NCBI GenBank assembly: GCA_028699715.1
Contig: JAQVUC010000016.1
Coordinates: 1-10,423 of the forward strand
From: Anaerolineaceae bacterium
GTDB taxonomy: Bacteria > Chloroflexota > Anaerolineae > Anaerolineales > Anaerolineaceae
Direction of reading: 5' to 3'
Length of the DNA: 10,423 nt
Below are positions 8,901-9,088 of the stretch, in pieces; the stretch's first letter is position 1, and each line of letters starts with the position of its first letter. The position numbers were made by a program, and so were the translations under genes. The notes under the pieces are model-generated. The model did no database searches and was not told the origin of the DNA. It saw only the letters and a program-made list of their open reading frames with translations.

Positions 8901-9088
8901 GCGCGTGCCAGCACGTGATGTACGCCTGGTTTTCCGTTCGCGGTCGGAGGACCTTCAAAAATCACAAAGGGGGGACGGTCTTTGCGTTCGTCAGAAGATT
9001 TCTTGAATACGTTATTTGCTTTCCAAAAACGTAACTGAGCTTCCTCTTCCAAAGGAATATTGAGTCTGGATGTCACTGGTTTAAACAT
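5933..9088 (-). CDS. ileS: Isoleucyl-tRNA synthetase, type 2 (Thermus-like), with rearranged class I signature GVHH
   Basis: A 1051-residue enzyme that charges tRNA-Ile. From the N-terminus it shows GPPTANG (46-52), the class I signature region reading P-G-V-H-H (54-58) instead of HxGH, and GGWDTHGLPVE (83-93). The CP1 editing domain has WTTTPWTLPGN (223-233) and GTGLVHIAPAFG (317-328). After it come VDQTRGWF (557-564), KMSKS (596-600), the anticodon-binding helical domain and a C-terminal extension. Cysteine pairs at 182/185, 393/396, 465/468 and 505/508 suggest zinc sites. The whole reads like Thermus IleS and other type 2 enzymes (RRGGWDTHGLPVEIEVEK, YCPRCGTPLS), not E. coli type 1, and type 2 enzymes are intrinsically tolerant of mupirocin. 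The start MFKPV matches the family, with GGAGG 4 bases upstream. Transcription is controlled by the T-box leader just upstream. It overlaps lspA by one base. Confidence 0.97.
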   Translation of the reverse strand: MFKPVTSRLNIPLEEEAQLRFWKANNVFKKSSDERKDRPPFVIFEGPPTANGKPGVHHVLARAFKDMFPRYKTMQGYFVDRRGGWDTHGLPVEIEVEKQLGFTQKSQIEEYGIAEFNQLCRESAFSRIQDWEQMTDRIAYWVDLDRAYITYKNEYIESVWWLLKSIWDKDLLYQGHKVVPYCPRCGTPLSDHEVALGYKDTEDPSIFVRFPLVEEEGTSLLVWTTTPWTLPGNVAVAAHPDVEYAIVTGEGLGEEKLILAKELVEKVFADRPYKILKTMKGKSLKGKRYAPLFTFIPPDKPAHYIVNADYVTTEDGTGLVHIAPAFGMEDMEVAKVYDLPFVMTIDDEGRFLRQVQNWAGVFVKEADHGIIRDLRERGLLFESGRFSHSYPFCWRCDTPLLYMARPTWFIKTSSIKNRMVQLNQEINWVPEHIRNGRFGNWLENNIDWALGRNRYWGTPLPVWECLDCRHQVCAGSRQELSNLAGKDLTDLELHRPYVDEIHFPCPKCGQGEMRRVTELIDVWFDSGAMPYAQWYYPFENLDEFKTQFPADFICEAVDQTRGWFYSLHAISSLVMDSKAFKNVICLGLILDENGQKMSKSKGNVVDPWEVINDYGADPMRWYMYTSSPPGNERRFSKELVGEVVRSFMLTLWNTYSFFVTYANLDKWTPDSTIIPQFSELDNWLLSSLETLVRDVTKAFEDFDVICATRPIETFVDQLSNWYLRRSRRRFWKSESDADKAAAYETLYKALVTVSKLIAPTMPFMSETIYRNLVASLDEKAPISVHLAEWPKLDERLINEKLNEDMNVVMKLASLGHAARNKSNIKVRQPLAEAAFAVGKAEEGEVLERFKDILEDELNVKHVRLLGGDEEAVTYNLNPLPKQLGQKYRALSPKIRQAILDLPAQESGLKLLEGINLVVNVEGKYYEILPDEVEVHTSSKEGYEVATEGPYMAALITTLTQELFYEGLAREFVRRVQDLRKTSGLDIADRIHVWFQASPELEAAIESNSEYISGETLAVELVKKELTGKELFNDTFDGQDLVLKLEKAAGGN

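What the first reader, a model, noticed from the sequence alone, without database searches (positions are those of the whole stretch)
8915..8926. IleS class I signature is GVHH instead of HxGH
The codons at 8915-8926 (minus) encode G-V-H-H exactly where type 2 IleS (e.g. Thermus) has H-V-G-H, so the first and third signature residues are swapped. The rest of the enzyme (GPPTANG, WDTHGLP, KMSKS, editing domain) is intact and this is the only ileS in view. Published biochemistry on IleS2 describes a subset with a GXHH motif that keeps activity and shows hyper-resistance to the antibiotic mupirocin. The window shows that variant as an apparently housekeeping, T-box-regulated gene in a probable Chloroflexota.
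Basis: partly seen in the sequence, partly recalled or inferred. Interest (0 to 1): 0.75.

Follow-up and report, generated by a model that had tools for sequence, protein, structure and literature searches.

The report
Swapped-motif isoleucyl-tRNA synthetase in Anaerolineaceae
This bacterium makes its isoleucine-charging enzyme with a key catalytic motif in swapped order, a known natural variant linked to resistance to the antibiotic mupirocin; the variant is ordinary for its lineage, but related enzymes have switched between the two forms several times, with a few other residues tending to change along with it.

Summary
Confirmed: window 8915-8926 (minus) reads GGC GTA CAT CAC = G-V-H-H, residues 55-58 of an intact 1051-aa type 2 IleRS, aligned on H-V-G-H of Thermus IleRS and on G-V-H-H of a solved Priestia mutant. 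It belongs to the G/AXHH subset of IleRS2 published in 2023 (PMC10485003). It is ordinary here: 12 of 12 same-genus genomes and 80 of 80 nearest genome-collection loci (overlapping sets) have GXHH. No second IleRS was found in the 73%-complete genome or in those 12. An Ile-type T-box precedes it; Ile-ligase T-boxes in Chloroflexota were already known.

Follow-up beyond the paper's text: 9 of 30 families read in the class have the canonical HXGH form. Trees of related IleRS2 need 9-12 switches (4-7 within the class genomes alone). Positions 61 and 585 change with the motif in 11 and 7 of 12 independent pairs, none against; 630 in 8 against 0, or 9 against 1 by another scoring. The window carries the GXHH set (A61, C585, G630). 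No single-swap intermediate (HXHH, GXGH) was seen. Mupirocin resistance of this enzyme is inferred, not tested.

The parts
5933..9088 (-). ileS, type 2 isoleucyl-tRNA synthetase, 1051 aa
   Evidence: TIGR00392 993.7 bits, cut-off 621.4; 1032.8 bits to Thermus IleRS 1ile; AlphaFold2 model (mean pLDDT 84.3) best matched by Priestia IleRS2 entries
8915..8926 (-). non-canonical class I signature GVHH, residues 55-58
   Evidence: translation, alignment to HVGH of 1ile and GVHH of 8c8w
8906..8908 (-). residue A61, co-varies with the motif (A/S/G with GXHH, T with HXGH)
7334..7336 (-). residue C585, end of the strand before the KMSKS loop; C/S with GXHH, V with HXGH
7199..7201 (-). residue G630, in a loop after KMSKS; not W with GXHH, mostly W with HXGH
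   Evidence: weaker in later proteins
7289..7303 (-). KMSKS, residues 596-600, intact
9133..9382 (-). T-box leader of ileS, specifier AUC (Ile), T-box sequence GGGTGGTACCGCG, terminator-like hairpin with T run (by eye)
   Evidence: RF00230 105.8 bits, gathering 93; GAA-N-ATC at the same place in 17 of 20 leaders read, window included
5409..5933 (-). lspA, signal peptidase II, start codon overlapping the ileS stop codon
   Evidence: TIGR00077 123.3 bits, cut-off 73.95

Best explanation
The gene is the housekeeping isoleucyl-tRNA synthetase of an Anaerolineaceae bacterium, a type 2 IleRS of the natural G/AXHH subset. The signature has its first and third residues exchanged; [quoted passage not shown] Shown here: the motif, type 2 identity, an intact frame, the same motif type in every same-genus genome held, a T-box with an Ile specifier, one IleRS in each of 12 same-genus genomes, and that the motif sits among residues (A61, C585, G630) that go with GXHH in related enzymes. 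Inferred: catalytic mechanism, mupirocin resistance, housekeeping role. Also shown: among related IleRS2 the two motif forms have replaced one another several times, and positions 61 and 585 tend to change with them.
For: Motif and frame; alignment on 1ile and 8c8w; TIGR00392 above, MupA and MupB models below cut-off; Priestia IleRS2 entries as closest folds; 12 of 12 same-genus genomes and 80 of 80 nearest loci GXHH; one IleRS per same-genus genome, other hits at most 34% identical there; in the window genome ValRS, LeuRS, MetRS; T-box. Mechanism and resistance: PMC10485003, Results and Discussion read: Ki 6.6 mM for natural ALHH Deinococcus IleRS2; HVGH to GVHH raised Ki from 0.20 to 35 and from 1.08 to 460 micromolar in two IleRS2. 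Switching and partner residues.
Against: No biochemistry on this enzyme. The genome is 73% complete, so a second ileS cannot be excluded there; hits other than IleRS in the 12 same-genus genomes were not typed by family. Partner residues have exceptions: P0062 (HAGH) has none of T/V/W, L143 (HIGH) has T61 but C585 and G630, the P0020 cluster (HVGH) has G630, P0047 (GTHH) and L133 (GIHH) have V585; in 48 later proteins 630 is D or E in 20 of 45 GXHH and W in only 1 of 3 HXGH. Nothing in the neighbourhood points to mupirocin as the selective agent.
Confidence: 0.92

Rival explanations
1. The motif is a sequencing or assembly error, or the gene is decaying.
For: The contig is from a fragmented 73%-complete assembly.
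Against: Same motif type in 12 of 12 same-genus genomes and 80 of 80 nearest loci; open frame of 1051 aa with the other motifs.
Confidence: 0.01
2. A second, canonical IleRS is the main enzyme and this copy is an accessory resistance gene, as the paper describes for species with both types.
For: Such pairs are known (PMC10485003); 27% of the genome is missing; at least two other Chloroflexota genomes, G108 and G140, carry two IleRS2.
Against: Each of 12 same-genus genomes (56-97% complete) has a single IleRS; Ile T-box leader; the two-copy genomes have GXHH in both copies.
Confidence: 0.04
3. The exchange is not mainly a mupirocin adaptation but one of two workable, co-adapted active-site states between which lineages move.
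For: 9-12 switches on trees of related IleRS2, 4-7 within the class genomes; each family read shows only one state; partner residues change with the motif.
Against: The measured effect of the swap on mupirocin is very large (PMC10485003); the ecology of these organisms was not examined here, and related natural inhibitors could select for either state.
Confidence: 0.4
4. Switches happen by exchange of the gene segment around the motif between IleRS2 genes (gene conversion) rather than by successive point changes.
For: P0036 (GTHH) is 90% identical to P0020 (HVGH), yet over residues 55-136 it has the other group's residue at 10 of 10 informative sites, against 8 of 123 elsewhere; its segment 45-145 is 94-95% identical to six sequences that are 64-66% identical in the rest, where same-motif pairs of that level average 76-80% with a 99th percentile of 88-91% (those pairs include P0036's own). 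No HXHH or GXGH among 256 loci and 168 proteins read (overlapping sets).
Against: Protein level only; the segment was chosen after looking. P0047, the other GTHH protein of that cluster, is patchy: 8 of 10 inside, 13 of 123 outside, four of these at 165-174. P0036 also differs from P0020 at 585, far from the segment. With the partner sites removed, the tree of residues 46-135 needs 9 changes instead of 6.
Confidence: 0.3

Closest known systems
G/AXHH subset of type 2 IleRS (Brkic et al. 2023, PMC10485003), e.g. Deinococcus radiodurans ALHH IleRS2
   Same: Type 2 IleRS with first and third signature residues exchanged; fourth His kept; can be the housekeeping enzyme.
   Different: The paper notes few Chloroflexota sequences and reports at least two gains and one reversion (Deinococcus-Thermus); the related sequences read here need 9-12 switches. 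X can be polar here (GSHH, GTHH), where the paper's text calls X hydrophobic.
Thermus thermophilus IleRS2 (1ile)
   Same: Best sequence match in the PDB; A and C at the positions of A61 and C585 (read from the alignment).
   Different: HVGH motif; E at the position of G630.
Priestia megaterium IleRS2, wild type 8c8v and GVHH mutant 8c8w
   Same: Among the closest folds; the mutant carries the same four residues as the window.
   Different: Natural motif HVGH; G, S and W at the three partner positions (read from the alignment).
Minor IleRS2 clade of Chloroflexota (GPITANNPMGVHH)
   Same: GXHH motif.
   Different: About 31-41% identical to the window; KMSKS replaced by an xMHKS-type loop in 38 of 42 loci by pattern; the window has KMSKS.

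Membership tests
Isoleucine--tRNA ligase (TIGR00392) | Score above curated cut-off | tested here: met
   993.7 bits against 621.4
Type 2 IleRS | Closer to type 2 than to type 1 enzymes | tested here: met
   1032.8 (1ile) and 1006.1 bits (8c8w) against 379.9 for the best type 1 entry 1ffy; fold search ranks Priestia IleRS2 entries first
Type 2 IleRS | C-terminal subdomain without the zinc-binding motif of type 1 | tested here: met
   no cysteine in about the last 200 residues of the translation, by eye; feature named in PMC10485003
G/AXHH subset of IleRS2 | G or A at first, H at third and fourth signature positions | tested here: met
   GVHH, residues 55-58
G/AXHH subset of IleRS2 | Retained isoleucine activation | not testable with these tools
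   needs enzyme assay
G/AXHH subset of IleRS2 | Strongly raised (up to millimolar) mupirocin Ki | not testable with these tools
   needs enzyme assay
MupA / MupB resistance proteins (NF000257, NF000258) | Score above curated cut-off of 1900 | tested here: not met
   928.7 and 916.3 bits
T-box leader (RF00230) with Ile specifier | Covariance-model match, T-box sequence, AUC in the specifier loop | tested here: met
   105.8 bits against 93; AUC at the specifier columns, read by me from the alignment; GGGTGGTACCGCG

The most novel reading that the evidence does not exclude
In IleRS2 of Anaerolineae and their kin the catalytic signature toggles repeatedly between HXGH and GXHH as a unit with a small set of partner positions (61 in helix alpha-1, 585 before the KMSKS loop, and more loosely 630 after it), so that two co-adapted active-site states replace one another, at least in part by exchange of gene segments that bypasses single-swap intermediates. 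Closely related natural enzymes (P0020 HVGH; P0036 and P0047 GTHH, about 87-90% identical) then form a ready-made test of how a class I signature can be rewritten.
Probability: 0.45. Interest if true: 0.65.

Novelty: new member of a known kind. Interest (0 to 1): 0.42.

Why it matters
The window adds one more bacterium, and one more genus uniform for the state, to a known resistance-linked enzyme form. The related genomes matter more: the 2023 study found no simple residue set behind the active-site shift that lets IleRS2 accept the swapped motif, and had few Chloroflexota sequences. Natural repeated switches give independent contrasts that point to candidate positions and to closely related natural enzymes of both forms, so the question becomes directly testable.

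Tried and rejected
Error or pseudogene: rejected by relatives. Apparent in-frame TGA in ileS of G003 and G004: both loci hold a 1060-aa frame and the TGA is the terminal stop. Positions 601 and 64 as partners: 601 scored 9 to 0 by residue frequencies but 5 to 1 when coded as L or not, reached in 45 of 2000 simulations; 64 scored 4 to 1, reached in 90 of 2000; not kept. Single-segment recombination as the sole cause of switching: not claimed, see the control. Direction of switches: not resolved; in the close-up tree of 26 rows starred branches force only 2 changes. Distances in the predicted model: no coordinates were found in the script box (listing).

Counting limits; 123 rows, quick method, no bootstrap, warnings of long branches (L120 among them); L149's motif was misread by my pattern there and, with P0074 (HIGN), set aside as 'other'; the forced minimum of 7 is that of the HXGH label; 247 of 331 rows after dropping near-copies, FastTree without support values; 126 of 298 class genomes matched at E 1e-250 or better; the other 172 were not examined, so families with other IleRS types are outside these counts. 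Loci were taken for 90 of the 126 (L176-L265); one search read 89 of them (L188 lacks the motif region), 4 being minor-clade; one search tabulated 88 by family, L180 (HVGH, family f100) being missing from my table. Phylum sample: 60 loci, about one per family, family f25 not read because its place was not listed, some families twice or more. In one search the simulated traits had on average 14.2 pairs against 12 real ones.

Changed on re-check: a control showed that the dips of the tree profile are carried largely by the partner sites, and that the class genomes alone need 4-7 switches; I lowered the novel case from 0.5 to 0.45 and the segment-exchange rival from 0.35 to 0.3 for that reason.

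Full report
Observation. The ORF 5933-9088 (minus) is an intact IleRS of 1051 aa. Codons GGC GTA CAT CAC at 8915-8926 give GVHH at residues 55-58. HMMER places it exactly on HVGH of Thermus IleRS and on the GVHH of Priestia entry 8c8w, which the PDB title calls a hyper-resistant HIGH-motif mutant. TIGR00392 is met (993.7 bits against 621.4); the MupA and MupB models are not.

Setting. The nearest genome-collection loci are Anaerolineaceae, some titled 'Candidatus Mesolinea'. The order on the minus strand is hisS (cut by the window end), tRNA-His, T-box, ileS, lspA, an RluA-type pseudouridine synthase and a threonine-aldolase-type enzyme. The T-box scores 105.8 bits (gathering 93) with AUC at the specifier columns. 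A T-box was found at 19 of 20 related ileS loci, 12 above the gathering score and 7 below it (74.1-92.9 bits), none at L052. GAA-N-ATC stands at the specifier in 17 of 20 leaders, the window included; three were not matched there by my pattern. A 2008 survey already listed an Ile-ligase T-box in Dehalococcoides and in Deinococcus (PMC2494555, passages only).

One gene or two. The window genome (1.70 Mb, 73% complete) has seven tRNA-synt_1 matches in five loci. Apart from ileS these are ValRS, LeuRS and two MetRS-like loci, one partial and below its cut-off. In the 12 same-genus genomes (56-97% complete) each has one IleRS at 68-84% identity; their other hits are at most 34% identical and were not typed by family. 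A second ileS in the missing part of the window genome is not excluded.

Known frame. PMC10485003 (Results and Discussion read; outline and passages; supplements not read) describes 86 G/AXHH against 77 HXGH among IleRS2, Ki 6.6 mM for natural ALHH Deinococcus IleRS2, rises from 0.20 to 35 and from 1.08 to 460 micromolar on HVGH to GVHH in two IleRS2, inactivity of the same swap in IleRS1, and the mechanism: a shifted alpha-1 tip lets the third His replace the first, and that His clashes with mupirocin. The window is a new member of a known kind. The paper states that no simple mechanism for the shift emerged from mutagenesis, and that few Chloroflexota and Planctomycetota sequences were available.

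Survey. Around the window the motif is uniform: 12 of 12 same-genus genomes (8 GVHH, 4 GIHH), 80 of 80 nearest loci (76 GVHH, 3 GIHH, 1 GSHH; overlapping sets), and the 7 of 8 same-order genomes read. Over the phylum, of 60 loci taken about one per family, 56 are G/AXHH and 4 HXGH. In the class, of 85 major-type loci read out of 126 matching genomes, 63 are GXHH and 22 HXGH; of 30 families with such loci, 21 show only GXHH and 9 only HXGH (several families rest on one genome). One HXGH example, L119, is 100% identical over the 1012 aa compared to P0001, which a source names Ardenticatena maritima.

Switches. On a 123-row tree with the motif masked, 9 changes between the two states are needed, at least 7 forced by well-supported branches. 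On 247 rows the count is 10 on a tree of residues 180-1040 and 12 on one that also leaves out 521-689. Restricted to 86 rows from class genomes it is 4 and 7, to 167 rows without metagenome proteins 5 and 8. Direction is not resolved.

Active-site signal. Trees of 90-residue bins with the motif removed need 9-16 changes except at residues 46-135 (6), 541-630 (7) and 586-675 (7), which hold the signature and KMSKS regions. Against a broad reading: with positions 61, 585, 601 and 630 also removed the same bins need 9, 10 and 10, so a few sites carry most of the effect.

Partner residues. Across 196 GXHH and 50 HXGH proteins, position 61 is A/S/G in 195 of 196 against T in 48 of 50; 585 is C/S in 186 of 196 against V in 45 of 50; 630 is G in 176 of 196 against W in 44 of 50. 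In 12 phylogenetically independent pairs, chosen on a tree built without these regions, the sites change with the motif in 11, 7 and 8 pairs and never against it when coded in two classes; 0 of 2000 simulations each reach this. With residue-frequency scoring the counts are 11 to 0, 8 to 0 and 9 to 1. Allowing for the choice among all columns, 2 of 150 simulated traits gave a best column of 11 or more, and 1 of 150 a third-best of 8 or more, so the evidence is good but not overwhelming. In 48 proteins fetched later, all 45 GXHH have A/G/S61 with C/S585 and all 3 HXGH have T61 with V585; but 630 is D or E in 20 of the 45 and W in 1 of the 3. These are kin of the first set. Exceptions in the first set: P0062, L143, L133, P0047, and G630 in the P0020 cluster. 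In the predicted model 61 lies in the helix that begins at the motif (56-74), 585 at the end of strand 580-586, 630 in the loop after helix 616-625. The window has A61, C585, G630.

How a switch may happen. P0036 and P0047 (GTHH) lie in a cluster with HVGH proteins, 87-90% identical. P0036 looks imported over residues 55-136: 10 of 10 informative sites of the other group, against 8 of 123 elsewhere, and its segment 45-145 is an outlier in similarity to that group. P0047 shows the same at 8 of 10 sites but is patchy. None of 256 loci and 168 proteins read shows HXHH or GXGH. Segment exchange is plausible, not shown; DNA of these two proteins was not available.

Literature on the new points. I found no paper on motif switching in Chloroflexota IleRS2 or on these partner positions with the searches 'isoleucyl-tRNA synthetase + mupirocin + GXHH', 'IleRS2 + IleRS1 + mupirocin', a broader one of which 20 of 1,237 papers were listed, 'ileS2 + IleRS + mupirocin + housekeeping' and 'isoleucyl-tRNA synthetase + Chloroflexi + mupirocin'. 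The library lacks most subscription journals. PMC4861432 was seen in passages only.

Verdict. The finding is right, and ordinary for its lineage. The wider pattern of repeated switching with a few co-varying residues is the part worth a specialist's time.

Noticed in passing
L030, L031, L034, L035, L118, L121-L123, L125, L127-L130, L132, L134, L135, L137-L139, L141, L142, L147, L148, L150, L152-L156, L158, L159, L161, L165, L166, L172, L260, L261, L264, L265: The minor IleRS2 clade of Chloroflexota has the second class I signature altered too: KMSKS is replaced by xMHKS, xMHRS or xFHKS in 38 of 42 loci by pattern; L128 shows it in the alignment, L175 has LMSKS there, and L033 and L174 show gaps at that place. 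A search for 'MHKS' with 'synthetase' listed one paper, on nitrate reduction in Bacillus, not opened.
   Followed up: partly
window 9460-9532 (-): A tRNA-His (GTG) gene sits between hisS and the T-box of ileS; a tRNA gene lies upstream of ileS in 6 of 20 relatives scanned, anticodons not checked.
   Followed up: no
G000:C323 and G000:C53 (L006, L007): The window's genome has two loci scoring as methionyl-tRNA synthetase, one partial; the assembly is rated 4% contaminated, so one may be foreign.
   Followed up: no
P0074: An IleRS2 protein with the signature HIGN, lacking the fourth His, in a cluster of five members from three sources.
   Followed up: no
L149/L150 and L151/L152 (genomes G108, G140): Two Chloroflexota genomes carry two IleRS2 genes, one of each clade, all with GXHH.
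   Followed up: no
L224, L237, L239, L242, L246, L249, L251, L256: The second motif position can be polar (GSHH in these 8 of 89 class loci read; GTHH in 9), not only hydrophobic.
   Followed up: no
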